Source: Apostichopus japonicus (taxonomy: Eukaryota; Echinodermata; Holothuroidea; Aspidochirotida; Stichopodidae). Taken from it: DNA of 64,000 nt. Positions 21,660-64,000 of this stretch are shown here, piece by piece (within the stretch, counting starts at the first letter, position 1; each line of letters begins with the position of its first letter). The DNA lies in NCBI RefSeq assembly GCF_037975245.1, contig NC_092567.1, positions 19,474,876-19,538,875 of the forward strand. Direction: 5' to 3'. The notes under the pieces were generated by a model that did no database searches, was not told the DNA's origin, and was given only the letters and a program-made list of their open reading frames with translations. The translations under genes and the position numbers were made by a program.

Positions 21660-21810
21660 AGCAGTCTAATTAGTAAGACTGAATAAAGAAGTAAGGCAGA
21701 GCCTCCCAGACCCTCAGAGTGTGCACATGTATTTTCTTGTTTCTGTGTTTTGTGTTCAAAGTCTGTCCATTGTCAAGCCCTCGGACTCTACAATGGCGTA
21801 GTCGGCAGGG
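21660..21810 (+). mobile_element. 3' part of an LTR plus primer-binding site, Ty3/Gypsy-type retrotransposon
   Basis: An AATAAA signal at 21682-21687 lies about 110 bp before a CTCTACA end at 21792. One base later TGGCGTAGTCGGCAGGG (21794-21810) has the position and TGG start of a tRNA primer-binding site. This is the usual R-U5-PBS order. The left LTR boundary was not found. Integrase-coding sequence follows almost directly, so gag, protease, reverse transcriptase and RNase H have been deleted from this copy. Confidence 0.55.
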
Positions 21811-22720
21811 TAATGTTGAAGATGTTGGCATGCATGGTTATGTAATGGAGGAAGACCTACTAAAGTACAAGATCGGGCCAGCCGGGCAAAGAGTTGTAGT
21901 CCCGGATCAGTTAGTGAATGAAGTTATCAATCAATACCATTGTTCACCTACGTGCCCCCACTTAGGTGTAAGAAAGACAATTTCTAAAATAAGGGAGAAA
22001 TTTTGGTGGAAGAGTATGAAATCTGTTGAAAAGTTCATCAAACAATGTAGGATTTGCCAGTTGACTAAACCAGTGTATCGAAAATCATCAGGGTATATGC
22101 AGTCTACTGTGAGCAGGTGTCCATGGGATATTCTGGCTATGGATCTTTTGGGCCCCTTCCCAGAAAGTAAAGAGGGCAAATTATATATACTGGTAAAATT
22201 TTAGCAGCCGTAATTAGACAATTATTTTGTACTTGGGGGGCTTGTAATACTCTAGTCTCTGACAATGGACCACAAATGATTTCACAGAAGGTGGCCCAAG
22301 TATGTGTTCTCTGGGGTGTAAAGAGGTCATTTACAAGCCCCTATCATCCTCAGGCCAATTGGGTTGAGAGGGTTAATAGAAACTTAGTTTCTATGTTGTG
22401 TTGTTTTATGAAGGGTGATCATACAGAGTGGGATGACTTGGTACCAGAGTTTATGTTTGCCCTTAATTCCTATGTACATGATTCCACTGGATTCTCACCA
22501 GCAGAGTTATTTCTTAACCGTACCCTGAGAGGACCTGGAGAATGGGTGGGGAGTGATAGCAAGGTAGTAAGGGATAAGGAAGCCATGTGGGCAGTTGCAA
22601 AACAGAACATGGAACGCCAGACAAAGGTCAATAAAGGGCAGTATGATAGAAAGAGGGAAGAGTCTATAGTCAGAGTGGGTGATGTGGTGGCACTCCGATC
22701 ACATGCTTTATCAAAAACCA
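21811..22720 (+). pseudogene. Broken Ty3/Gypsy integrase
   Basis: First open part to 22204: an H2C2 zinc-binding region (YHCSPTCPHLGV..., then CRICQ) followed by the start of the catalytic core with AMDLLGP (first Asp). A stop at 22202 and a frame change follow, with the stretch that normally links to the second Asp mostly missing. The core resumes in another frame with VSDNGPQ (second Asp) and VERVNRNL (catalytic Glu), then a C-terminal tail with YDRKR. Lesions: an internal deletion of roughly 25 codons, at least one frame break, loss of all upstream domains, and an abrupt 3' junction at about 22.70-22.75 kb to sequence of opposite orientation. It cannot make an active enzyme. Confidence 0.85.
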
Positions 22721-23801
22721 GAGCAAAGGCCCTTAACAAGTCTCTCCCCAAAAGTACCTGACAAGGAATGTCAGCCACATAAAGCTCAACTTCTTCAGTC
22801 TCCCCTGCAATAGTCATGGAGGTAGACACCTTACCTGTGACAACCAGAGGTGTGTCATCCAAAAGCTTAAACCACAGGGGTTCATTCAAAGGCATAACCT
22901 CACAATTTTCAACCATTAAGGTACTGATGAGTGACCTTTCTGCTCCACTATCAGCATAAGCAAGAACTTTCCCACCAAATAACATTGCCTCAAAATACGC
23001 CCCATCCAACTTGCATACATTTGTCACCTCAGAGCTATGCTCCAATGAGACCCTAACTCTGAACAACCTTTCCTCCACCTCCTTGTTAGAAATTCTCACC
23101 AAATTAATGCCAACATTAGCATTTTGATCACGTGACACATTTGAACAGTTATATACCGTATAACTGAAATGTCCCCATTCACCACAGGTATAACATCTGA
23201 TGTTATTAAGATCTGTAGCTGGTCGGCGAATTCTACTCCCTTGGCTAGAAGCTGGCCTCTGTGACTGCCCTGTTGTTTCACCGGCAGTTTGGAAATATGG
23301 TCGTGTAGTAGCTGACATCGATCTGGAACCTTGACTCTGTCGATTCCTGCTAGTGACCCTGGCAACCAAGATGTTATCAGCAAAATCCGAAATTTCCACA
23401 AGGGAAGTCCACTTCTGCTCCAGTAACTGTAAACGCAAAGATTCGTCTCTTAATGAGGAGATCATTTGATCAACAGCAATCAAATCCATTATTCTAGTAA
23501 ACTCGGGTGAAGATGCCAATCTATCTGTGGGAGCTGTCCAACGTCTCAAATACAAACTAAGCCGACTACCGTACTGTCTGAAAGTTTCTGATGGGCCCTT
23601 TACAGCGGAACGAAACTTCTCCCTGTACGTATCTGGAGTAAGCTGAAATGCTGCCAACAATGCATCCTTAACTACAACATAACTTTGTTTCTGACTTTCA
23701 CTTAAAATGTGGAAAGCTTTCTGTGCCTTGCCAGTCAAGTATGGTTCCAATAGAATAACTTGATAAGGATGTTCAAGTGATGCATAGATCAACTCTACCA
23801 A
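22720..23801 (-). pseudogene. Ty3/Gypsy gag-protease fragment
   Basis: One open frame of about 360 codons. It encodes a gag capsid-like region (PYLTGKAQKAFHIL, SETFRQYGSRLSLYLRRW), then a CCHC-like knuckle starting CYTCGEWGH but with too long a spacer before the last Cys. A retropepsin domain follows, with active-site triad DSGA in AYADSGAERSLIS and the LLGRDLLR flap-end motif. Reverse transcriptase should follow but the frame instead runs into antisense of the neighbouring integrase, so the fragment ends near 22720. The unusual knuckle spacing may be a small insertion. Domain order and motifs are characteristic; activity is unlikely without the rest. Confidence 0.82.
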
Positions 23802-29209: not shown

Positions 29210-31235
29210 TATCATGACGACCATTCCAGTTGTGCCTGTAGCTGTCAAGGGTTGGAATAGTATAAATTCTTTTGTTTGTTAGTATGCCTCATTTAAATTT
29301 GATTTGGTTCAGTATGGTTTGTAGGTTCCCGATCACCGAGGTGGGGTGGGTGGGGGAGGGGAGGAGGGGACTTGAACACGAGATTCTCAGCAAAGGTTTT
29401 TTCCCGCGTACTGCTACCATATGTGTCAGTCACTATCACTGGACATAGATCTACCACCTCCAACCCTACCCCCCCCCCCCCAATCTGAAACCTGTGCAGA
29501 TCCCTCTGGTTTCAATTGATCGAAAAAATGGTTGGATGGAGGGGAGTAGTCACATGAAAACCATATTAAAAATATGATAATCCTAACAGAACCTAGAATC
29601 CTACCATAGTGGTTAAACTAGCATCGACATATCTATCATTCTCAAAATATTGTGAGTATTCGACAGCACAAACGTCTCGGACGAGCCATTCCATTCAACA
29701 CCTACTCACCCACCCCACCCCCTCCCTCCCATCATAAAACATACTTGTCACAGAATGTAGGCATATAAAAGTATTTAACGTTTCGGGGAATCCCCTCCTA
29801 GAACACCCCCTACAAGGGAATTTGGCTTCAATGACCTCAGGACCAAACTCCTGCTTGCTCAACTCCTGAATCCACCCACTTTTTTTAACTGGCTGGATAT
29901 AGTCGGAAAGTTTATGATCGTTGGCACGCGAGTAACTGCTCTTATTTTGGTCTTGTGGGAAGGCAAGGGCGAGGTAGGCGTGGAGAGGGGGTCGTTGAGA
30001 GAGGGGCGTGGAGAGATGGATCTTGCACTGTAAATATCGGTGACCTTGCGGGTACCAAAAGCTCTGTAGCAACCATAGAGCAGAATATAAGAACTGTTGT
30101 ATGGTAGCAACTTAATTGCGTCGCAGAGCAGTCTACCATTATTATACTACAGTATGAGTAGTAAAAATAACCTTTTTGATTTATTCACCTTGTTCCCTTT
30201 GAAGTGTACATCAAGGGCCTGCCAAATTCAGTTAATCCATTTCATACCACGGTTCGTGTGTAAACATGGTCAAATCGCAAGGAATTTGGTTTTACGAGAG
30301 AAACGAGCCTGTATCACTAGGGACATATTAACATAGAACAGCCCTTACAATGTATGCAATTGGGGGGGGGGGGGGGGTAACATGCCTATACATGCGCGTA
30401 GATTACGTCATATACACACATGTATAGGCATGTAAGCCCCCTCCCCCTTCTATTCTAATCTTCAAAAATTCACAATGGGAGTATTGTGGCTACCATTAAC
30501 GGAGTGATTGTATGTGTTATACGAGTAAAAAAGAAGGTGATGAGATTTTGTTACTTTGTGTGAACATGGATTCATTTCGGTTTTTATTGTACATCAGTCA
30601 CCACCAATTAGTGTGTAAAATGTGTTTACCATAACAGCCTCAATGACACAGTTTTGACGTGATAACTTGAAAGGGCTGTAAACTCATTGAAATGAATCGT
30701 CACTTTTTATTAGAACATTTATACAGACATTATTACAATATTCGTCTGCTTTCTAGTTGCCAAGCGATGGGAACGGCGCTTTCAGATTGCACGTGATTTT
30801 AACTTGGAAAGCGAAAAACAATAAAAAAAGTGTAATCAGGCTCTGTCGAACAGACTAAATAATACTGGTAGTAGATTATAGTGGTCCGACTTGTATATAA
30901 ATATATTTATACGTGTATGCGAAAAGCACACATCACCACTGAAAAAAACGGTATACGCATTTCTGCTTCAACGATATCGATATGCGGATTAAAACTTAGC
31001 AGATATTTGACTCAAGGGCACAGACGAAATTCTAGCTCTTTATATTGGATCTGTTGTGAATTTCCTGCAGTCTACCTATAGTGTAATAGGAGCATCACAC
31101 TCACGTGAAATAAGTTGAGGCCTAGCCACCGATATATGATGATGTAGTAGAAAGCTATATCTCTGCCACTCATGTAAGGGAAGTTTCGAGCATCAAAGCA
31201 TTTCAATAAATTGTGCGTAGGAATTTTCATCTTTC
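29210..31235. other. Intergenic stretch upstream of NT5E
   Basis: No gene recognised. It holds several G and C runs (29341-29372, 29467-29482, 30362-30377) and a hairpin at 30378-30434. Minus-strand frames at 29.7-30.1 kb are Pro/Ser/Arg-rich and resemble nothing I know. The NT5E promoter should lie in the last few hundred bases; I found no convincing core element. Confidence 0.4.
30362..30448. repeat. Inverted repeat / hairpin
   Basis: TAACATGCCTATACATG (30378-30394) is followed 24 bp later by its near inverse ending CATGTATAGGCATGTA (30419-30434). The arms extend outward as a G run on the left and a C-rich run on the right. Probably a miniature element. Confidence 0.65.
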
Positions 31236-39103
<7,868 letters not shown>

Positions 39104-44463: not shown

Positions 44464-47400
44464 CTAACTGCTTTCATCTGCTTCGTTCGTTTCAAACCAC
44501 TTTACCTCACCATGCTTCATTGTGAAAAATGTTTCGTCACATTCTTCCCTTTTAGCCTTCTTTAAATCTTCAATGGGTTCATTTATTTTCTACACAAGAC
44601 AATACAAGGGGAAGAAATATGTATTAAGTCCTTTTTAACAATTACCAGTAAAACAAGAAAATTCGTTGCAAAATGAGTCTGAGCATATATTTTTAAAGAC
44701 ATCAAGTAATATAAACAGTGGATGAAGATCCAATTTAGGCTACTTCTTAACCGGCTACTATGTAAATGTTAGGCTACAGTGCTTACTGTACATGACAGAC
44801 TATTGTAGTGGATACAAACCTAGATAATGAAGTTCTTCTTTGAACGAAAGTTACGATAGACCAATATTCCAAACTTGGAATTTTATTCCCGGACTTTTCC
44901 TTAAGCTGGTAAAAAGTCTTGAAGCCAAGATATTGTTGCAAAAATTTAATTGATTAAACATACAAAGTTACTTTATTAAACAAATAAAACTTGACGGTAG
45001 GTTTTATATTTAAACTTTCCAGCTGCGGGGTTATAGTGTTATGAAAATGTGCAATAAAAATAGTGATATGCATTAACAGACTGTTTTTGTATCGGATCGG
45101 ATTCACAGTGATTTAGTTGGGCTATGTTGTTAAACAAAAGAGGTTAGAACAAACTCATCCATGAAATTTTGTCCAAGATGAAAATTCCAATGTCAAACCC
45201 TAAGGTCACTGGAAACATTAGTATTCATCACGTTTCACAACATGATGCTTTTCATGTGAATTACAGGCTATATGAGATTATCCAAAGATATGGGTTGCCT
45301 TTATCGGTGAGGCATAAATGCAGTTAACATGAGTCATTAATATCTTATGTTTCATGACTCATAAATTAAAACTATACCTCATTGCTCAATGCAAACATTC
45401 CCCAGTGAATTGCAATTGAGTTCTTCGCATCTAGCTCCCTGTGGACAATCAGTGCTTCTTCAGGGTTAATATGTTGTGCCTGCATGACTGGTCTAAAAGG
45501 TTAAAACAAATGCATATATATATTTATATATTTTGTTATAGAAGCAGCTATTTCAATTTGGTGGACAATTTTTAAGACTGAATCTACCAAGTACTGCTTA
45601 AAACTAGAGATATGGAAATTGATGAAATTATGATGAAATGAGATAATAAACTGAAACATACAGTACCACCCAATATCTGCATGCAAGCTCAATCTGTATT
45701 CAACCTTCACTGATTAAAAGCTTACAGTAGTTGTTATAAATACATGACTTAAAGTACTCACCTTGGCTTGCATGCACCAATCGGGATAGCTGCAAGGTCT
45801 GGTGACCCATACTTATTCTTAATTGAGGGGTAGAGTCCTTGAGCATACCCAGTATCCCCTGCAAAGAAGAACTTTGAGCCTCTAGGGCCTACAATGTACC
45901 ACGAACACCAGAGGTGTCTGCAGTAATAATAACGCAGATTTCTCCCACACCAGTGTTTCGCTGGTGTGCATGCAACGGTTAGGTTTCCTGTTGTCGTCCT
46001 CTCTTCCCACCAGCCTAACTCGGTCACATTGGTACAGTTCCTGTCTTTAAACCATTGAGACATATTCTTTGGTACATACCATTGGATGTCCGCTTTGTAA
46101 GCAACTAACTCTGAGACGCTTTGCTCATCCAGGTGATCAAAGTGATCATGGCTTATCACAACTGCATGAATCTGTATGTTTTCGTCTTTCAAGTCTTTCA
46201 CAGTTACAGCGGGTGGTCGGAACCTCTTGTAGTTGAAGATACGAAACCCACAGATCCTCGGACCACAGTCATAAAAGACCGGATCCGTGAGGATATTGAT
46301 ACCATCAATTCGAACCAATAGTGACGCATGTCCAATCCATAGTACCCGAATCCCCTTTTCAGGAGGATTCCGCAACCATTCCAACGATTCCCTGGCTGAC
46401 TCTGGTAAGTGTTCCTTCAACTCCTGAAAACAAGGAACACCAATAGATCAAATAACTATATGGAAGAAAGGTTTTATGCTTCCAGTCATTATCTCAAATG
46501 ACAGTTACTTTCCCGAAAATGGTAATTAAAGGAGTGTCCATAGGTTGCATCTCTTGCTTTCAAGGTTTCCCAGACTTTGACCACTAGTGACATCTGAATT
46601 CACACTTGATCTCTATAAATAAGTACAGGGTTTTATAGTCACTGAGTTAGTCTTAAATGTCAATTAAAATTTTTCTACAAACTGTGCTTTTGGAATTAAT
46701 TATCATACTTACAAGATTGTCATACTTTTCATTTAACTTCATCACACCGTTGACCTCTACAATTTTCACTTTTTGTACTAGAGTGGACCAATATATTAAG
46801 AAAAAGTTCATCCTTGTTTGTTGTTATTTTATAACACTGTTTTCAGACTTTTTTCTGTGTTGGCCTCCTTTGACCCTACAAAGGTCCAAAAATATGGATT
46901 AATATACCATATACTAAATTATCTCAAATGATATCTGGTAGCCATGAAAACTTTTAAATATCTTTACTAAATAAGTCGGACATACTGTGAGAATTTCATT
47001 GAAGCTTGAATTTTGGTGTTACCCAATATTCGCTAAATTGTTGTACTTGAAGGTATAGTTATCTCACATAACCTTTGACCGTTACAAACATACCAAGCCT
47101 CACTTTTGTAGTTATTGTTTTAAAAATGTTTTCAGGCTGACCTCAAACAACCGATTTTCACACTCACTAAGATGGATCTATAAAAGTACAAAGCTACTGT
47201 ATAAGTGCGTCTTTACAAGGTTTTATCAAGTTTTAATATTTTGATCTTAAATAAGAAATTTAATTTATTAACTTTAAGTAACATTAACGCATGTGCAAAG
47301 TTATGTTAATTTTTTTATGTTTTTTATTTGTAATCTACCGTCAGTAATTAACTCGTAAAAAGAAAAATTGTACTATATTGCCTGGTTCACTTTACAGAAT

Positions 47401-53135: not shown

Positions 53136-53663
53136 CTGGGAGCATATATATAATATTTCTTATATCTTATATAGGGTGATATAATATTGTATTCATGTAC
53201 TTTCTACCTGTTGGACCAAACTTTCTTGCCATTCATGGACTTGCCTCTCATTTAAACATTCCGTCCTACTGCTTTACCTCAAGTCTTTTCATAGTGTTTA
53301 AAAGCTATGTTTTGTTGTCTTGTTACTATTTTGTAACAGTTTCACGTCTCAAAGTTTTATGTAATATAAACGAGAAATAAAGAGACCAACAAAAAGACAT
53401 TTTGTTGTCATTCTTAAAAAACGAAAGTTCTCCAGACTGATCAAAAGTCCCTCAAAGCTGACCTCATCGTGGTGTCAGAGTGGCAACTACTGTCTTTTCA
53501 GTGGGTGAAGTATATAGAGCTTCTTCTGGCTATTTTTAAGCCAAAATGCCCTCTCGGGTTTCAAATTTCATTGCCTGTTGTATAACCTGAATGTTTCCTA
53601 AAAACTAGTTATGCTTGAAAATAAACTTAATAAAAAGGCCCATGTCTCGATAACATCAGGGCT

Positions 53664-53795
53664 CTATAGGCTGATTACTAACAACCCCATGTACAATTTC
53701 AGGAGGGTGAATTTGAAGGGGCACTGGCAGGGCTTGGACACTTTGCAGTGGCAGGGCTTGCACTTGGAAGAGCACCAGCATGGGTCCATCTTCAT
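53664..53795 (-). CDS. Cys-rich 43-residue open frame, doubtful gene
   Basis: The minus-strand frame begins MKMDPCWCSSKCKPCHCK and continues VSKPCQCPF. Cys-X-Cys and Cys-X2-Cys spacing resembles a metallothionein N-terminal domain, but it has only seven Cys and then a hydrophobic tail with no Cys. The plus strand of the same bases has a good acceptor at 53701 and AATAAA just past a stop, so the region may instead be a plus-strand terminal exon. An internal repeat (TGGCAGGGCTTG twice) could produce either frame by chance. Confidence 0.2.
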   Translation of the reverse strand: MKMDPCWCSSKCKPCHCKVSKPCQCPFKFTLLKLYMGLLVISL

Positions 53796-54030
53796 GAGAG
53801 TCTCTAAATAAAATTATAGAAGGTGATAAATGTAAGCCATTGTTGAATGTCTGACTTCAGCTAGTAGTGTTTAAAGTACCGATTGTAACGATATGGTATT
53901 GCTTGCATGTATTGTTATGTGTGGATACCGGATATAGCAAATCGATGTATTGGCAGTGAATATTTCATGATCTCTAGGGGTCCTTATGCCCCTATCCACA
54001 CAGAAAAGTCATTTCACTGACATGAAAAAG

Positions 54031-54093
54031 TCCTCTTATCATTCGATATATGCATGGGGTTCCTCTTATCATTCGATATATGCATGGGGTTCC
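54031..54093. repeat. Perfect 30-bp tandem duplication
   Basis: 54031-54060 is repeated exactly at 54061-54090; the unit begins TCCTCTTATCATTCGATATA. The lack of any difference suggests a recent event or an assembly artefact. Confidence 0.9.
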
Positions 54094-56146
54094 ATGATGT
54101 AAGCAATTCAATTCCGCTAGTTTTATCACGCTTAGTTATGGCATTTCGCGCAATACGTACCAACGTGTAACGAGACAGTCACCACTTTACTCGCAACCTG
54201 TATTCGTAACCTGTATTCGTGTGTGTATATAGTTGTCGTGAACTTGATTTTCGTTACAAGATGATTTGAAGAGAAATGCATATTAATTTGTGGTAAAGGA
54301 GTTTTTTTCAGCGAATATACCAGTTTTCAAAATTTGAAATGATGATAATCATGCCTCATGCCAAAGAAAGCATTTTTCTAAACAGTTCGAAAATGGTTAA
54401 TTTGCGTTCAGAAATTACGGCCGAAACTCCGTTTCCACTCCTTATTTGTGTCTTTTGTCCGTAATGATTGAATTAAACACCTTTCCTCCATCAAATTCAA
54501 CAATTACCTAACATATTATTGCTTAATGACTGAGAAATTGACCTTCGAATATGATAATTATTACCTAATTAAATATTAATGAGGAGTGACATCAGGAAAC
54601 CCCGTGCATATTCTACAAGAAAAGAAAGCACTTTTCGCACCGCTGGAGCCTGACTGTACCGTCCGGAAAACCCCTCGTTTGCGAAATTGTATGAATATGG
54701 TTTTGTTTCCTTCAATACACCCCAAACCAGGTGTTATTTATGAAAGTATTACAAGATAGAGTCTGGGAACAAGAAAATCACGTACTTGTGACATCCACAG
54801 TTTTGGAATATCGATGTAGTGTACATGTACGTAGAAAGAGTCAAATAATTTTACTTACCTACCGTGGCTCACAGCGGCCATCCAGGTTTTGCCTACACGT
54901 TGTAAAAGGCTCCATAGCACAGCTCCATGATATTGTCTATATAAGTCTAGCTATCTTAGATTTTGGTAACAGCTTGCCTGATGTGTTTTCAACGTGCTTT
55001 CATTGGAAAAGGGTCTCTTCTTTTACATTTTGAAAGTAAAAAAGTCCGTTGATCCTTGGAATGGCTATAAACAGTGTGTATGCTGGGAATGGGAGGGGGA
55101 AGGGGTCGGGGAGGGGAGTCACGGTTGTACGATTTATATTAAATTAAGAAAGCATCAGCATGTATGTAGTGATATCAAATTTGGCTAGCATGCCTGCCAG
55201 CTGTTTTCTCAAAATTGATACGCACATTTTATTCCGTCCCTCCGTCCAGGTGCTGACACATAGCGAAAACTACAGACCATTTTTGCGTTGGTAAATGGTG
55301 GAAATCGAGGTAATTCGTCCGTTTACACACCTTCCAATCGAGGTATCACCGACAATCGAGGAATACCTCGATTAGAAAAGTACTGGCGTGGCGCTATTTG
55401 TGATCCTTTAAATGCTAGGAAAGTGATTTTGGTTCAATTTGAAGTAGTACCTCGTTTGGCATCATGCCACCTTGTTTATATACATCTTTGTGTATACATG
55501 ACTACGGCGCGATTTCACACAAAAATGTCAGTACCTCGATTACACGATGGACTGACGGCTGCGAGTCACTACATCGAATGGCGGGATCCCGCATGATTTC
55601 CTCGGTTTTGCGGTGGAAAACTGTCCCGTCGCAATACGGTGGTAAATATAAAATCACTTTTTTATTTAGTCAAAAATGTAATATGATCCTAATGTACCCG
55701 CTTGAATTCACTAATCGAAAAGCCATAGGGCCTAAGACTAGAGTTATGATTCGTGTTGACCATAGTCTAGGACTAAATGCCTAGGCCTATATATGTTGCT
55801 AGGCTATATATTTTAACAGCCATAACATAAGGTTAGGCTCTGCAATAACATGCAGTAGATGCAGTTTTGATAAGAGATAACAAGTGATCTCATCTGTGGT
55901 AGCCTATGAACTAATGCATGTGGGCCTAAGTTTGTATGGTCCTTAAAACCTATGTTGAAATAATTTAGCCCTTTCATTTTTTTTTTGCGCCTACGAGACT
56001 ATTGTTAGTTTTTTATTTATGCATTTACTTAACTTGCATTTAGGGGAATGCATTCAGCCAAATTTATTTCTTTCTTTTAATATGATAACTTAACTTAATC
56101 GTTAATTGTTAACATTGTCTCTGTGACATTGTTTTGTTCTTGATAG

Positions 56147-59100
56147 ATGGGGCGCAGAAAAAAACCTGATTATGCTGTAGCAGCTAGAGAATGGATAAAT
56201 TCACATAATGAAGACCCACCTGGCTTTTACATTAAAGAAGTGTCACCCACGATTGGTGAGCATTACATGCGTACATTTGTTAACCACAATGACATTAATT
56301 TAAGAGAATATGTATCTAGTTTGTAATATTTATTGTCCTTAAACTGCCTACTGTCTAAACGTTTCTTTTTTATAAGTGTTTGTAGAAAAGTACACTGGGT
56401 CTACAATTGTATTACCTAGATAAAAGAAGAACTATATGGACATAGGTGGAAGATGCATGTTGTATATTTACTTGTTCTACTTACTACAGGTAAAGGGCTG
56501 TTTGCAGACAAAAGCTTCTCAACAGGCGAATTTTTGGTGGAATACAAGGGGAAGTTGGAAGCAGCATCTAACTATGAAAATGTTGATGACCTGACATATG
56601 TTTACTATTTTGTTGATGGGAGGAAGGAGTTGTGGTAAGTAGGTCAAATGTCTTGTAATACCTCTACTCATTCCACAGCAGCTTCTACTTGAATTGGATA
56701 TGGTGTGTACTAAGCAGCATAAAAATGTGTTATAGTATCAGGACCAAAGTAAATTTCCTTTCATATTATTAAATAAATGTTGTAGTTCTTTGAATAAACT
56801 CAATTTGTGTAGCATTCCCTTCCTCATACCACATCATCTTATCACCCAGTGCTGTAGGAATCAAGTCCTTTTGTTGTGGACTAGGACTCAGACCTGGGAT
56901 GTCTTGCAGTCAGACTTGTCTCGGACTTCAGATCCCCTGGACTAGGTCTCAAGTCTGAGTCGAGATGTATTCCACATTCTGTATGTCAGTATAGTAGGAG
57001 TTAACACATATGGCCACACAGTGGACCTTCACTAATTGATTGTATTATTGTAAGTGAAGAACTATGTAAACGATTGTGGTGCCAACTGAAGTTGTAGGTT
57101 TCATCAGTAGATGATTGCAAACAAATAATTTGACTTATTATTACCAGTGCATTCACAACATTTACTTTCTTTCAGTGTTGATGCAACTTTGAACCATTGC
57201 TTAGGGAGATATGCAAATGATGCATGGAAGAGTCCCAATGCCAAAGTATTAAAGATTCTCATAGATGGCACTGCACACCTTGTTTTGGTAGCAAGGTGTG
57301 ATATCCTTCCTGGTGATGAAATTCGATATGATTATGGTAGAAAAGATGCACCATGGAGACAAGTTAGACAACAGGTATGTAACTTGACATGCTACAATGA
57401 CTAACACTGTATACTTAAACATCCTTTTTATTTACTTTTGTACATTACTCATTCTTTTCAAACATGTAGGAATGTTTCTTGAGGAGACTTTTCAAACAAC
57501 AACAAAATTCCAAGTTTCCTGTTGAGTAGGATACTTCAGGTAAAAATGTTACAATTCATGTTCATTGTAGCATATTGCACATATATTGTGTGGCATGTAC
57601 TTCATTTTGCAGATCATAGCCACAAAATGGATGGTTTTTTGTGCATGTCTTTGTGATATTCTTTAGTTTTATGTCTTTTTCAATTTCATGGAATTTCTTA
57701 GCTTCTTAATTTAACTATATTCACTTTTTCTCCTACAGAGTTTAGGAGTTAATGAAACTGACAAACCTAGTTCATTAGGTTCTAATGGGGAACATACTGA
57801 GGAAAGTGATAGCACTGATAAAAATACTATTAGAAAACAAACTGCTACAGCAAGCAATTACCAAAAAGAAATACCTAGTACAACAGAAACATGTGAAAAT
57901 GAGAGTGTAAGTTTCAAAAGAGATACTGAAGAAGTGGTCAATGAATTGTTACTTTCTCTTGACAACACTTTATTTGGTAAAGCTGCTAAGGAGGCAACCT
58001 CAGATACATCTAGTGCAACACATACTAACGGGGAAGCAAGTGAGAATGGAGCTCAGACAGATAAAGCTAACAAGGTGGTGCATTCAAACACATCTAGTTC
58101 CAGTAAGAATGAAGCTCAGACTGAAAACAACAAGCTGGCTTACTCAGACACATCTAGTACACCACATGTTCTTAAAGAAGCTAGTATGACTGAAGCTCAG
58201 ACACACTCAGACATGCCCAGCTCAGCAGTTGCATCTAATAAGAAATCTAGTATAAATCAACCTGAGAGTGATAATGCTAGCAGGCAGACACAACGAGACA
58301 CAGGCAGTTCAACAATCACTTCTCATAGGGAATCAATTCCTAATGAAGCTCAGAACGATAAAGCTAAAAGTCAGACACAATCAGATACATATGTTTCGAC
58401 AATAACAAGTAGTTGTGAAGCTATTATGAGTGAAGTTCAAACACAAAAAGCTAATACCCAGACACAATCAGAAACTTCTAGTTTAGCAATTACTACCAAT
58501 AGCGAAGCTAGTATAAATGAAATCCAGACTGATAATGCTAGTAGGCAGACACAGCCAGACGCAGACAGTTCAACAATTGCTACAAATAGTAAAGCTACAA
58601 TGAGTGAAGTTCAGAAGGATAATGCTAAAAGGCAGACACAATTAGATGTATGTAGTTCCACAATTACAACTAGTTGTGAAGCAGGTATCAATGAAGTTCA
58701 GACACAATCAGAAACGTCCAGTTTAGCAATTAGTACTGATAGCAAAGCTAGTGTAAACGAAATCCAGACTGATAAAGCTACCAGGCAGACACTTCATACT
58801 TCCTTTGCAGAAAGCAATGCTCAAGATAAAATTGTTGTAAAAGATATTTTCAGGTTTGAGTTTATTCCGGAGAGTCCTGTAAGGCAGGCTGCATCATCGG
58901 TAATAGATATCAGTAACATTTCATCAACGTCCCGTGACTCAATTGACATTTCAAACAGCTCTCGATGGCTTCGTACCAAAACAAAGACTTGTACTTATGT
59001 TGAAACATCTAGTAGTGAAGACAGTGGCAGTGAATACAATGAATCAGACGATAGATACGAATCTGAGAGTGATTCCTCTGATACCTCTTATGTGATACCT

Positions 59101-62100
59101 GTCCAGAACAAAATTTCATCTTCTAAGCCTGTAAGTCCATCACCACAGGTCTTTTCTAACATTGTCTCATCAACTTCTAATTCAGGCAGTGAAGTCAATG
59201 AAGAAGGTAGTAAAGAGGAGCAAAATGTCTTTGTGAGGACAACTAATAATGAAGGTAGTAGGACGTGGGACAAAGTAGACTACTGCATCTTTTGTGAGGA
59301 GAGCAAGTCAAAACTATCCCAACATATTCAAACACAACACAAAAATGAATCTGAAGTCATTGATTGGATACAGACAAAAGACAACAAACTTAGGATACAA
59401 AAGTTGAAGAAAATGCGGAATATTGGGAATCATAGGCACAACTGTAAAGTTTTAAGAGAGGGCAAGGGGGAACTTATTGTAACATACAGGCCATCCCCAT
59501 CAGGTTATCCTGCAAAGCCAAGTGACTATGGCCCATGTCCTAACTGCTATGCTTACCTAGTCAAAAGAGAAATGTGGAAACACAGATGCCCTGAAAAAGT
59601 ACCACAAACTCAGAGGAGGAAAGTTATCCAGAGTAGTAATTTATTGCTACCTGCTACTGTGTCAACAGACATGTCACAGCATCTACAGCGGGTACTATCA
59701 TCTATGAAATCAGATTCAGTTGCTAGATGTATTAAAAGTGATGCCCTTATTGTTGAAGTTGCAAGCAAAGAATGTTTTAAGCTTGGACATAATTCTGAAC
59801 AAGATAGTTACATTAGAGAGAAACTTAGAGAACTGGGGAGACTAGTTTTACAGCTGAGAGAGACTTTTGGTGATGAAAATGCATCTTTGTTGGATTTTAT
59901 AAACCCTGAAAAATTTCAACAAGTCCTCAAGTCAGTTAGGACTATGTGCGGATTTAGTGACAGCTCTCACACATACATCAATCCAAGTCTGGCCCTGAAA
60001 GTAGGTCATACTTTGAAAAAAGTTTCCACTGTCGTGAAAGGCCAGGCATTAGAAAGAGGTGATGACATATTGTTTCAAAGAGCCAGTGGTTTTCTTGATC
60101 TGTGTGGGATTCGTTGGACTGAAGAAATATCAAGCCATGCTCTTCGTACACTTTATCAAAGGAAACGGAATAGTCCACAGCTTCTTCCGCTTACTTCTGA
60201 TATTGTCTGTTTAGCCAACTATACCAAAAGTGTGGCAGCTAAACAATTGTCAATTTTGCAAAACAAAGGCTTGTGTAAACAAGATTTGCATTCAGCATGG
60301 GTCAAACTAGCTGAAGCAACCCTGACAAGGGTTATCACTTTTAACAGACGTAGACAGGGTGAGGCATCAAAACTGAAATTAGTTGACTACAAAAGCTGCT
60401 CAATAGGTGCCAAAGAAACAGCATTAGAAGAAACATTAACAACATTTGAGAAAACTCTATGCAAGTCTTTGAGCCGTGTGGAAATTGTAGGTAAAAGAGG
60501 CAACACAGTTCCTGTCATTCTTACAAGTGATATGAGAACACAGATTGACATGCTTGTAGCAACAAGAGATCAAGCAGGCATAAGTGCTGACAATCCCTAT
60601 GTCTTTGCCAGAACATGTTATGGGTCACTGAGCTTCATTCGGGGGGCTGATTGCCTGAGAAAACTTTCTGAGACATCTGGAGCAGATAAGCCAGAAACAT
60701 TAAGATCTACACGTTTACGCAAACACATTGCTACAGTTTCTCAAATTCTACATCTTGATGAGAATGAATTAGAAGTACTTGCAAAATTCATGGGTCATGA
60801 TATCCGAACACATAGAGCCTACTATCGGTTGCCAGATGAAACAATGCAATTAGCCAAGATGACTAAGTTTCTGCTGAATCTAGAGAAGCCAGGTTCATTA
60901 ACAGAAATGAAAGGAAAATCTTGGAAGGACATGCAAGTCAGTGCAAATGAAGGTAAGTTTTTTTTTTTTTTAAATAATATATTGACAAAAGTTTCAATGT
61001 AAATTGCTTGAATATAGTTTATGTCTATTTAGGATGAGATATTAAATAAATGCAATCATAAATGTGATCAAACCATCTTGGTAGCTATTTTGCCTTAATG
61101 TTCATTGCCAGAAGGTTTCAGACAGAAGGTTTCAGACCTGTAAATCCAAACAGGATAAAGCTAGCACTAACAAAAAATTTAGTGGTATGCGAAACATGTA
61201 TGCAATTTGTTGGATTAAGAATATTTTTTATCATGAAGCGATTATGTGTGGCATTGCGAGATCAGGTCTGATATCACTAATCAGTTGGTCATGTACTGAT
61301 GCCAATGCATATTTCTATTCAGTTTGAACGTTTGGTAAAATCTAATTTGATGAAGCTGTATAGAATTGTATTTACAGTGACCAATCTCATAATGACTATG
61401 TGTTTTGTGATTTTATAGAAGTTGTAGAGGACCCTGGTGATGCTGATAGTAATGATGAATGTTCAGATGCAGATGTTGAGGATAATGCTGCAGCACAGGA
61501 ACTACAGGAACCAGAAGCAATGCTAGAAGAAACTGGTGAGTGTTTCTATTTTATACAACACCTAATTATATTCCGGCCATTTGATTGGTCAATTGCTCGT
61601 CGATTGCATGCAAAATCCGCTCTATTGCACTCTATGAAATAGAACCATGGGTTATACTTTTTTGATAGCACTTTTTTTCAATGGTAAGAGAGCAGAGAAA
61701 CCTGTCTTTCCAAAACAATCTGTTGCATGAGTGCATTTTACATCCAATTATATCCAAATTTGAAGGTGTTGTATAAAACAAATAATGCATGGTTTCCATT
61801 CGTGCAATAGTGCAAATATTTCAACTCATGAAATATTTGCACTATTGCACTCATAACCATTCATTATTTGTATAACAATGAATGCAAGTAAAGTCAATCT
61901 CATAACAAAGCAATATTCACATATGTAGTGTAGTGGGAATATGTAGTGGGAATGAAATGTTGTTAAAAGCAAGGTGATTACTTCCCCTTGTTTCCAATTA
62001 ATCAAATCATTTACACTTCTGATGGTTAGTATGTTAAAAATATTAATTTTAGAGATATGTTTGTGATTACAGATGATAATGCATTCAAGGTTCGCAGTAC

Positions 62101-62335
62101 TACAAGCTCTTCAAATGTGCCACAAAAGACTACAAAGAGGAAAGCCTGGAGCACGGATGAAAGGGACGCCATAATGAAGCATTTTTCAGGGCTGATCTTA
62201 CGGAACAAGCTTCCTGGCAAAACTGAGATTGAGAGTGTAATGGTAAAAGAGAAATCTCTTCATTCTAGGTCATGGAGGAACATTAAGGATTTCTGCAGAA
62301 ATTGTATTGTCTCAAAATCAAGGAAGCTGCATTGA
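56147..62335 (+). CDS. SET domain / zinc finger / tyrosine-recombinase-like / Myb-like fusion protein
   Basis: Exons: 56147-56255, 56490-56634, 57176-57374, 57739-60952, 61419-61535, 62073-62335; GT/AG, phases 1, 2, 0, 1, 1; 1348 residues. Residues 36-145 form a KMT5A/SET8-like SET domain: KGLFADKSFSTGEFLVEYKG, YVYYF, CVDAT, LGRYAND, HLVLVARCDILPGDE, YDYG. The usual NHS motif reads NDA. About 258-505: Ser/Thr/Gln repeats; about 560-620: acidic Ser-rich. At 667-768: Cys/His zinc-binding motifs (CIFC...HIQTQH; CPNC...HRC). About 960-1190: tyrosine-recombinase-like core with Arg box I (NRRRQGEASKL, R1023), a Lys turn (GKRGNTVPVIL), RLRKH (R1145; the preceding His of HxxR is Thr), GHD (H1171) and HRAYYR (Tyr 1179/1180). 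The C-terminus has an acidic linker then a Trp-containing Myb/SANT-like module (RKAWSTDERDA...PGKTE...SRSWRNIKDF). Recombinases of this type occur in animal mobile elements; fusion to SET suggests cargo capture or domestication. Retention of intron 3 would give a SET-only form stopping at 57404. Confidence 0.82.
58050..58800 (+). repeat. Coding tandem repeat, unit about 33 codons, in exon 4 of the SET/recombinase gene
   Basis: Imperfect units carry SSTIT, SEAxxNE, VQTD or IQTD, and ASRQTQxD-type blocks; about seven to eight copies. The frame stays open throughout. The region is low complexity, likely disordered, and links the SET domain to the zinc-binding part. Confidence 0.8.
61549..61778. 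mobile_element. MITE in intron 5 of the SET/recombinase gene
   Basis: TTTTATACAACACCT (61549-61563) and its exact inverse AGGTGTTGTATAAAA (61764-61778) bound a 230-bp body with TTGATTGGTCAATTG. Superfamily not assigned. Confidence 0.75.
61770..61882. repeat. Long near-perfect hairpin in intron 5
   Basis: Positions 61802-61823 and 61829-61850 are perfect 22-bp inverse arms around the 5-bp loop ACTCA. Pairing continues outward with a few mismatches (ATGCATGGTT against AACCATTCAT; ACAAATAAT against ATTATTTGT), so the stem approaches 50 bp. It overlaps the right end of the neighbouring MITE. Confidence 0.88.
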
Positions 62336-62404
62336 GAGTGGAATATTGTTTTCTGACATGCAGTAGTGCAGCAACACATCGATGTCTTAAATGCAAATTG
62401 ATGC

Positions 62405-62410
62405 AATAAA
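62405..62410 (+). terminator. Polyadenylation signal of the SET/recombinase gene
   Basis: AATAAA 70 bp after the stop codon, in a good position for a short 3' UTR. Confidence 0.7.
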
Positions 62411-64000
62411 AGAGAAAAAACACAACATTCAGCAAATACTTTCTATCCTGGAACTATGTTTATTTTCCCTCACAGTGTTCTTTGAGTTTGGATTCTTTTT
62501 ACCTCTCATTGTTTAAGAAGTACCATTTGTTGTATAAGAAGCATTTTTTTAAAGTCACTTTTGGATTATTATGTTGTAGGGCAGTGACTTTGAAACTTTT
62601 AACAAATCCAATCTCTATGTGTACTGTACTCATAGTCTTGTCATGTGCATGAGCTCAACTCTTTACTGTGAGTACACCCTGTTTAATTCTTTCCAAAGTT
62701 ACTTCAACATGGTTTTAACTTGAGATCAGAACATTGCTACCAATTTAAAAAAAAAAAAATCCTCAAAGTAATTTTCAATTGGCGTTAAAAATGATTTATA
62801 TTCTTTGAATCTTTGTAGTAACAGTTGAATATTTTGAACAAAATGTTCTGGTCTATTGATAATAGTTTATCACACCTGATGTTGTGTTCTTGCAGAACCT
62901 CAATCATTGTGTAGCGTATAGCATATGTTTGTCAGTTTCAAGGACTTAAACTTCTTTCTAGACCTATTTTGTGCATTATTCATGCAGGGTCAGTTATAAC
63001 AGTGTTCATTCCTATTTACTTCACATGTTGTCATTTGTTACATAAGTGGTGTATTTTAGCCTTCAAAAAAGAAGTATGTTTTTGTATAGATTGTAAAAGT
63101 ATTAAGGAAGGTATATTTGATTTTGAGAAAACGTACAAGATTATCAGTAAGTATAAAGGGGCTTCTCAGTGACCAAGACCTGCCCTCCCATGAAATATGT
63201 ACTTTACTTGTCTGATAAAACAGATTCTTTTTAGTCACCATGTTCTACAAAGTTTGATATAAAGGGCTCCTTTTTCATCACCAAAAAATAGCTAAAACTG
63301 GCAAGAAGGTATGGAACAGACTTGAAGAAGAAATGTTAGTGTTTATTCTAACCTACCTCTCATCACTTAATCTACTCTTTAATTAGTCTCCTTTTTATAT
63401 TTTAACACGTTATACCACTTGTTTTATTGTTCATTTTAGAGAAAACATGTTTGTGTTTGAGTCACCTTTATGTTCGATCTTCTTTCTTTTCTATCGTAGT
63501 AAACACTAAAGCAAACTTCAAGGTTCAGTGGAGTACAACCAATACTTATCTGTCCCTCCTAAACATAATATATGGCAATACAATTTTTCATGGTATAAGA
63601 AATGCACTGATTCCTCGATTTGATGTTATGATAGGCTCGATAGCTAGTCAAGTGTATATGCTATTCAATAGTCAGTACTTCCTTGGATGGTATATGGACT
63701 TCTGAAGTTTCATCAATGAAAAATATTCCATGTTTCGGTTGTATTAGGAGTACATTGATTACTATATTCATGAACCCAAATGAAGAGTTTTTCTCGATTG
63801 TCGGGTGAATTTCTCAAGTTTACACACTGTTTAAATTATGACAGATACATATAGGTTAGCCGAAATAGTGTAAGCATTGAGTCGCATGTATATGGGTATA
63901 TCTATTATATCATCCATTCGTGTATGCTCCTCTGAATACAAACTGCTGTCCGACAAATTAGCCCCATGTCCGTTGACATAAGAAATACCTAGACTCCTCG
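62411..64000. other. Downstream stretch with nothing recognised
   Basis: AT-rich sequence. Plus-strand frames at 62969-63172 and 63427-63705 are open for 67-92 codons but show no domain, no family resemblance and no convincing splice partners. Confidence 0.45.

What the first reader, a model, noticed from the sequence alone, without database searches (positions are those of the whole stretch)
56147..62335. Histone-methyltransferase-type SET domain fused to a tyrosine-recombinase-like protein
Six exons join in phase into one 1348-residue reading frame: KMT5A-like SET, repeats, zinc-binding motifs, a recombinase-like core with Arg, Lys, Arg, His and Tyr in the expected order, and a Myb-like tail. 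A 3.2-kb exon with no stop in AT-rich sequence implies selection or a recent origin. A mobile element carrying a lysine methyltransferase module could mark its own integration sites or silence itself; a domesticated gene could use the recombinase fold for targeting a methyltransferase to DNA. I do not know a described system with this exact architecture, though I cannot search.
Basis: partly seen in the sequence, partly recalled or inferred. Interest (0 to 1): 0.95.

Follow-up and report, generated by a model that had tools for sequence, protein, structure and literature searches.

The report
Histone-methyltransferase joined to recombinase-like protein
An animal gene joins an enzyme part that normally marks histones to a long part that looks like, but is not proven to be, a DNA-cutting recombinase, which suggests that a jumping gene may carry its own chromatin-marking enzyme.

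Summary
The six-exon gene is real. All five junctions are GT-AG and in phase, giving 1348 residues. Its 1095-codon open frame dwarfs the longest in 100 simulated windows, 210. A codon model trained on the recombinase-like part favours the predicted frame in all eight other coding blocks scored. Exon 4 is coding from its start but has no ATG for 149 codons, so it is very likely spliced to exon 3, which fits in phase. The N-terminal domain is a KMT5A-type SET (Pfam 2.7e-12, KMT5A 9.7e-16), with NHS changed to NDA. The recombinase claim is plausible but unproven: Arg, Lys, Arg, His, Tyr stand in order, but two of three gaps lie outside the range of 13 known enzymes, and no family library, solved structure or fold search confirmed it. 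The closest published match is an expanded family of mostly N-terminal-SET 'KMT5A-like' genes in Hydractinia (up to 65) and sea urchin (61) with a shared, unexplained C-terminus. I think this gene belongs there and derives from a recombinase-type mobile element. Copy number, mobility, transcription and family identity were not testable: own-genome and protein-database searches gave no answer.

The parts
56147..56255 (+). coding exon 1 (start codon; acceptor-like sequence ends at 56146)
56490..56634 (+). coding exon 2, first half of the SET domain
57176..57374 (+). coding exon 3, second half of the SET domain (VDAT, GRYANDA in place of GR..NHS, YDYG, APW)
57470..57539 (+). possible cassette with acceptor and donor that would end the protein after the SET domain at an in-frame TAG; codon score below zero in all frames, so perhaps not used
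57739..60952 (+). coding exon 4 (3214 nt): acidic/Ser-rich region, repeats, zinc motifs, recombinase-like core
58198..58792 (+). 29-residue repeats (87-nt spacing between the first five, 153 nt to the sixth)
59284..59340 (+). C2H2 motif CxxC...HxxxxH
   Evidence: sequence; only sub-threshold zinc-finger matches in Pfam
59536..59589 (+). second Cys/His motif CxxC...HxxC
   Evidence: sequence
60352..60354 (+). putative catalytic Arg I (R of NRRRQGE); also chosen by the unaided block scan
60493..60495 (+). putative catalytic Lys in a hairpin-like stretch (VEIVGKRGNTVPVIL); not chosen by the unaided block scan
   Evidence: strands on both sides drawn in one low-confidence model, absent in the other
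60718..60720 (+). putative catalytic Arg II (TRLRKHIAT; Thr where HxxR has His); the unaided block scan chose an Arg five residues earlier
60796..60798 (+). putative His of the GH box (FMGHD); also chosen by the unaided block scan
60823..60825 (+). putative nucleophile Tyr, 9 residues after the His
61419..61535 (+). coding exon 5 (acidic linker)
62073..62335 (+). coding exon 6, Trp-spaced Myb/SANT-like tail and stop codon
   Evidence: no Pfam match
62405..62410 (+). AATAAA, possible polyadenylation signal 70 nt after the stop
   Evidence: 137 such hexamers in the window against 122 expected, so weak

Best explanation
One intact, multi-exon protein gene of an animal genome. It belongs to the mostly N-terminal-SET 'KMT5A-like' family reported in hydrozoans and sea urchin, and it encodes a divergent tyrosine-recombinase-type protein that captured a KMT5A SET domain. 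Shown: gene structure, fusion in one reading frame, SET domain of KMT5A type, five residues in recombinase order. Inferred: the zinc motifs, the recombinase fold and the C-terminal Myb-like tail bind DNA; the recombinase core cuts and rejoins DNA, or did in the ancestor, through a 3'-phosphotyrosine with an R-K-R-H-Y set like that of type IB topoisomerases (recalled); the SET domain, if active despite NHS to NDA, methylates a lysine (H4K20 is the KMT5A precedent) near the bound DNA, altering chromatin at the element's own ends or new sites. Keeping catalytic-type residues and an intact frame fits a recently mobile lineage better than an old domesticated one.
For: In-phase six-exon model; open frame far beyond chance; coding signal in the predicted frame in every exon and at the ATG-less 5' end of exon 4. 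SET 47.5 bits and KMT5A as best structure. R-K-R-H-Y order with gaps 47, 75, 26 and 9; the Lys-Arg gap lies within the 63-91 of 13 known recombinases and 9 is the Cre distance from W315 to Y324. An unaided scan picks the same first Arg and the same His. The strict box II-GH-Y motif occurs in 3 of 200,000 shuffles, and among 131 reading frames of 100 aa or more only in XerC, XerD and this gene (motif shaped after seeing the gene, and it finds only 2 of 13 known recombinases). The only plasmid hit (E limit 1) in 72,556 records lies on this box, and in 3 of 4 fetched relatives of that plasmid gene the next gene is annotated as an integrase. Published family: up to 65 genes in Hydractinia, 24 in Hydra, 1 in Nematostella, 61 in urchin; the 13 early-activated Hydractinia genes are not adjacent and are highly divergent. 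Such a patchy distribution is what a mobile element gives.
Against: No recombinase match of the core in profile or solved-structure libraries. Two of its three anchor gaps (47, 26) lie outside the ranges of the 13 knowns (23-28, 20-23). A four-block profile of those 13 scores the core only 1.4 sd above shuffles (266 of 3000 as good) and places Lys and second Arg elsewhere; the 13 themselves score 33 to 97 when left out in turn, the core 2.0. A recombinase HMM ranked at least 15 of 500 shuffles above it. Fold models had pLDDT 35-36, with no recombinase among the 50 listed of 172 fold matches. The plasmid lead has E 0.07, and a phage structural protein that is surely unrelated gives a pairwise score not far below it (35.4 against 43.5 bits). 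No terminal repeats or second copy were seen in the window; copies elsewhere could not be searched. Thr replaces the HxxR His. Membership of the published family was not tested by sequence. Annelids mostly show no such expansion (three kmt5a genes only in Capitella).
Confidence: 0.45

Rival explanations
1. A domesticated host gene, SETMAR-like: a recombinase-derived DNA-binding half steers a KMT5A-type methyltransferase to chosen sites and no longer recombines.
For: Intact multi-exon gene with introns and linkers; SETMAR shows that a SET-transposase fusion can be steered to transposon ends (abstract of PMC6326780); Crypton-derived genes are often transcription regulators; 24 of the published urchin relatives are expressed in early embryogenesis, in stage-dependent patterns.
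Against: The domesticated vertebrate DUF3504 genes all lost the catalytic Tyr and second Arg (PMC3212892), while candidates for both are present here. Large, patchy copy numbers are unusual for one domesticated gene.
Confidence: 0.27
2. The C-terminal half is not a recombinase but an unnamed animal zinc-finger/helical protein family; the five residues match by chance and by choice after the fact.
For: Profile, structure-sequence and fold searches gave no recombinase; block score z 1.4; two of three anchor gaps outside the known range; the motif was shaped after seeing the gene, and looser versions occur in 31 to 468 of 50,000 shuffles while finding 3 to 7 of 13 known recombinases.
Against: Full residue order; Lys-Arg and His-Tyr spacings fit; the unaided scan picks the same first Arg and His; against the plasmid family's profile the core ranks 3 of 1001, with the match on the same box.
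Confidence: 0.23
3. Two neighbouring genes: a SET-only gene ending in the cassette at 57470-57539 and a separate recombinase-like gene in exons 4-6.
For: The cassette has both splice sites and an in-frame stop in phase with exon 3.
Against: The cassette has a negative codon score, and exon 4 is coding from its first codon with no ATG for 149 codons, in phase with exon 3. At most it is an alternative SET-only isoform.
Confidence: 0.05

Closest known systems
Expanded N-terminal-SET KMT5A-like genes of Hydractinia and Strongylocentrotus (PMC10368294)
   Same: SETD8-type SET at the N-terminus of a long protein with a long C-terminal part; animals; many divergent genes reported there.
   Different: The main text uses neither 'recombinase' nor 'integrase', and the section on them treats the genes as H4K20 methyltransferases. 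Sequence identity with the window gene could not be tested.
SETMAR / Metnase (SET fused to a mariner transposase)
   Same: A lysine methyltransferase domain fused in front of a DNA-mobilising enzyme.
   Different: Mariner is a DDE-type transposase (recalled), not a tyrosine recombinase; the SET here is of KMT5A type; SETMAR is described as anthropoid-primate-specific.
HarbingerS and MuDR transposons of Phytophthora that carry SET histone methyltransferase genes (cited in PMC12730594)
   Same: Mobile elements carrying a SET histone methyltransferase (passage).
   Different: Harbinger and MuDR use DDE-type transposases (recalled) and these come from oomycetes; here the partner is recombinase-like, in an animal.
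Crypton transposons (CryptonA) and DUF3504 genes (PMC3212892)
   Same: Animal tyrosine-recombinase DNA elements in which no terminal repeats were found, and host genes derived from them.
   Different: Animal Cryptons are described with no C-terminal domain and the recombinase as the only recognisable domain; no DUF3504-type Pfam match was found here; the present protein has a SET domain, zinc motifs and a Myb-like tail.

Membership tests
KMT5A/SETD8-type SET methyltransferase | SET domain closest to KMT5A | tested here: met
   Pfam SET 2.7e-12; the first 14 of 36 solved sequences are KMT5A/SETD8, 61 to 56 bits; the next is another SET protein (4ldg) at 42.5 and the best KMT2A has 39.6
KMT5A/SETD8-type SET methyltransferase | conserved catalytic and cofactor motifs (GR..NHS, YDYG) | tested here: inconclusive
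   GR, N and YDYG kept; NHS reads NDA in the alignment; effect on activity unknown
KMT5A/SETD8-type SET methyltransferase | SET at the C-terminus of a short protein | tested here: not met
   SET at residues 37-139 of 1348; the usual architecture is as stated in PMC10368294
Tyrosine recombinase / type IB topoisomerase superfamily | catalytic Arg, Lys, (His/Lys)xxArg, His/Trp, Tyr in order | tested here: inconclusive
   R, K, R, H and Y in order, Thr at the HxxR first position; an unaided block scan agrees on the first Arg and the His but not on Lys and second Arg
Tyrosine recombinase / type IB topoisomerase superfamily | statistically supported profile or fold match | tested here: not met
   the fold search used a model of pLDDT 35, so it has little power
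Tyrosine recombinase / type IB topoisomerase superfamily | strand exchange through phosphotyrosine | not testable with these tools
   needs biochemistry
Crypton transposon | DUF3504-like recombinase | tested here: not met
   no such Pfam match; animal Crypton sequences were not on hand to compare directly
Crypton transposon | multiple copies in the genome | not tested
   all 11 genome-search requests did not complete; only the window was searched
N-terminal-SET KMT5A-like family of Hydractinia/urchin | SETD8-type SET at the N-terminus plus long C-terminal part | tested here: met
   against the description
N-terminal-SET KMT5A-like family of Hydractinia/urchin | sequence similarity in the C-terminal part | not tested
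   no animal protein collection answered

The most novel reading that the evidence does not exclude
A class of animal tyrosine-recombinase DNA transposons carries its own KMT5A-type histone methyltransferase, fused to the recombinase. The unexplained expansions of 'H4K20 methyltransferases' in hydrozoans and sea urchin (in Hydractinia switched on early, alongside transposon-related sequences) are copies of this element rather than duplicated host regulators.
Probability: 0.33. Interest if true: 0.87.

Novelty: new variant of a known kind. Interest (0 to 1): 0.65.

Why it matters
SET-transposase pairings are known, but the ones met here are SETMAR and the SET-bearing Harbinger and MuDR elements. 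A tyrosine-recombinase-like partner joined to a KMT5A SET would be a new pairing and would suggest that histone-marking enzymes are captured by mobile DNA repeatedly. It also offers a directly testable explanation for the published surplus of KMT5A-like genes in hydrozoans and sea urchin.

Tried and rejected
Rejected: (1) a viral-contig relative (L001). The match covers query residues 328-427, which include the putative first Arg and Lys, but it hangs on one shared peptide, and the protein is a phage structural protein beside a major head protein (PHROGs 7e-22 and 3.8e-54). Chance; it also shows how far chance can reach, so the plasmid lead is held loosely. (2) Relatives of the SET, tail and zinc-motif pieces in viral contigs: none; a degenerate box II-GH pattern matched the window once and no viral contig. 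(3) Relatives of the recombinase-like part in prokaryote genome contigs: none among 12 pattern matches; in phage records: none at E 1. (4) Recombinase HMM, four-block profile and hhalign (0.14 and 0.09 percent): not significant. (5) Fold prediction of 59263-60951 (563 residues) and 60190-60900 (237) without relatives: pLDDT 35.2 and 35.9, useless; the PDB fold search on the first gave nothing with E up to 0.001. (6) Terminal repeats: none convincing in 53500-64000; the inverted pairs are poly-T runs, one palindrome, or short. (7) NCBIfam match to a bacterial effector's SET (AnkI/LegAS4, 21 bits against a cutoff of 550): reflects only the shared SET fold. (8) Selection: among six repeat units, 13 of 15 pairs had dN/dS below 1 and 2 above; units of 29 codons are too short to lean on.

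Literature: 10 of 10 paper searches used. No listed title or abstract described a SET-tyrosine-recombinase fusion, but several lists were cut (20 of 82, 15 of 16, 20 of 63, 15 of 1,481, 15 of 87); (KMT5A + tyrosine recombinase + transposon) returned 0 papers. Only open-licence papers are held. Read: PMC3212892 (abstract, sections 5, 8, 10, 16), PMC10368294 (passages, section 9), PMC12730594, PMC2200798 and PMC12153100 (passages), PMC6326780 (abstract and outline). From memory only, not tested: that fish, coral and mollusc genomes hold many predicted proteins with a similar zinc-motif / GH..Y / Trp-spaced-tail layout, and the residue roles in KMT5A, Cre and type IB topoisomerases.

Full report
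What is there. The window holds a complete six-exon protein-coding gene model on the + strand at 56147-62335. The exons are 56147-56255, 56490-56634, 57176-57374, 57739-60952, 61419-61535 and 62073-62335; every intron begins GT and ends AG, and the joined sequence reads 1348 codons with one terminal stop. The big exon lies in a 1095-codon frame without a stop. In 100 simulated 64-kb windows with the same dinucleotide content the longest frame averaged 147 and never exceeded 210.

Is it one gene? I trained a codon model on 59263-60951 against background from 54000-56100 and 62501-64000 and scored the rest. Exons 1, 2, 3, 5 and 6 and the three other parts of exon 4 all score best in the predicted frame. 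All five introns score negative in every frame; so does the stretch 55000-56100, but it is part of the background. The first 149 codons of exon 4 score as strongly as the trained part (0.25 against 0.21) yet contain no ATG until 58186, so exon 4 very likely does not begin the protein, and exon 3 is the in-phase partner. The margins are small for exon 1 (0.033 against -0.018 and -0.019) and exon 6 (0.097 against 0.039). A 70-nt cassette at 57470-57539 has both splice sites and would end the protein after the SET domain; its codon score is negative, so it is an optional isoform at best.

The SET half. Pfam SET matches residues 37-139 with 47.5 bits. Of 36 distinct solved sequences matched, the first 14 are KMT5A/SETD8, best 9.7e-16 and 61 bits; the next is another SET protein at 42.5 bits and the best KMT2A entry has 39.6. 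In the alignment the GR, the Asn and the YDYG motif are kept, but NHS reads NDA. From established knowledge of SET enzymes (recalled), the His of that motif helps hold the cofactor, so activity must be measured, not assumed.

The recombinase-like half. The residues Arg (60352), Lys (60493), Arg (60718), His (60796) and Tyr (60823) stand in recombinase order with gaps 47, 75, 26 and 9. In 13 known recombinases fetched here the first three gaps, by alignment column, are 23-28, 63-91 and 20-23 (in XerC and XerD the Lys column holds Gly), so the first and third gaps here are wider than in any of them. The first His of HxxR is Thr; type IB topoisomerases also lack it and use R-K-R-H-Y (recalled). 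Tests against this reading: Pfam, PHROGs, NCBIfam and PDB sequences give no recombinase; a recombinase HMM puts at least 15 of 500 shuffles above the core; a four-block profile gives z 1.4, with 266 of 3000 shuffles as good, agrees on the first Arg and the His, and places Lys and the second Arg elsewhere; hhalign gives about 0.1 percent probability. Tests for it: the strict box II-GH-Y motif is found in 3 of 200,000 shuffles and, among 131 frames of at least 100 residues, only in XerC, XerD and this gene, but the motif was shaped after seeing this gene and finds 2 of the 13 known recombinases; looser forms find 3 to 7 of 13 and 31 to 468 of 50,000 shuffles. The single hit in 72,556 plasmid records (E 0.07, 34 percent over 79 residues) lies on this box. 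In 3 of the 4 relatives of that plasmid gene that I fetched, the next gene is annotated as an integrase (in the fourth, no neighbour is annotated in the stretch). Against a profile of that family the core ranks third of 1001, two shuffles scoring higher. A caution: a phage structural protein that cannot be related gives 35.4 bits in a pairwise comparison, against 43.5 for the plasmid gene.

Other parts. Exon 4 holds 29-residue repeats at 58198-58792 and two Cys/His motifs at 59284-59340 and 59536-59589. Exon 6 ends in a Trp-spaced Myb/SANT-like tail without a Pfam match.

What is known. PMC10368294 (section 9 and passages read) reports as many as 65 annotated genes similar to KMT5A in Hydractinia, 24 in Hydra, one in Nematostella and 61 in Strongylocentrotus. 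Most of the Hydractinia genes, and of the urchin genes expressed early, carry the SET domain at the N-terminus, and the longer Hydractinia and urchin genes share their C-terminal ends (E below 3e-43). [quoted passage not shown] The words recombinase and integrase do not occur in its main text. An annelid survey reports three kmt5a genes in Capitella only (PMC12153100, passages). The window gene has the N-terminal-SET architecture. Patchy, divergent copies are what a mobile element leaves, but I could not compare sequences, so membership is a hypothesis. SETMAR (abstract) and SET-bearing Harbinger and MuDR elements (PMC12730594, passage) are precedents for the pairing. In the Crypton paper, the domesticated vertebrate DUF3504 genes lost the catalytic Tyr and second Arg, whereas candidates for both are present here, which leans towards a still or recently mobile lineage.

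Verdict. The gene model and its fusion are solid short of RNA. The SET identity is solid, its activity open. The recombinase identity is plausible and unproven. I put 0.45 on a recombinase-type mobile-element origin, 0.27 on a domesticated regulator, 0.23 on a non-recombinase C-terminus and 0.05 on two genes.

Limits. The own-genome search did not complete 11 times and the protein database was switched off, so copy number, orthologues, selection across species and the host's identity are untested. That the host is an animal is inferred from the spliced genes and recalled gene names in the window.

Noticed in passing
window 21695-22758 (+) and 22473-23801 (-): Frames with retrotransposon integrase domains on + (Integrase_H2C2 66.8 bits; rve 31.2, just under its cutoff of 32.6) and a gag/aspartyl-protease-like frame on - overlapping them (matches under their cutoffs): probably two degraded Gypsy-like elements (the Gypsy label is recalled).
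   Followed up: partly
window 31221-31643 (+): Exon-like frame with a calcineurin-like phosphoesterase domain (24.6 bits, cutoff 21.5), resembling the start of a 5'-nucleotidase (name recalled).
   Followed up: partly
window 45761-46447 (-): Frame with a strong metallo-beta-lactamase-fold match (Lactamase_B_2, 84 bits), resembling NAPE-PLD (name recalled).
   Followed up: partly
window 61778-61871 (+), intron 5: Palindrome with 22-nt perfect arms 5 nt apart (61802-61850) and 82% self-complementarity over 97 aligned columns, like a small foldback element.
   Followed up: no
window 54031-54093 (+): 30-nt unit repeated exactly in tandem, 2.1 copies.
   Followed up: no
L003:1477-5936 and L016, L018, L019: Paired large plasmid genes: a 'hypothetical protein' directly followed by an annotated integrase in three of the four relatives fetched; the L003 member had no Pfam match above chance and may be an unnamed recombinase-cassette subunit.
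   Followed up: partly
window 57470-57539 (+): Possible stop-containing cassette that would give a SET-only isoform.
   Followed up: partly
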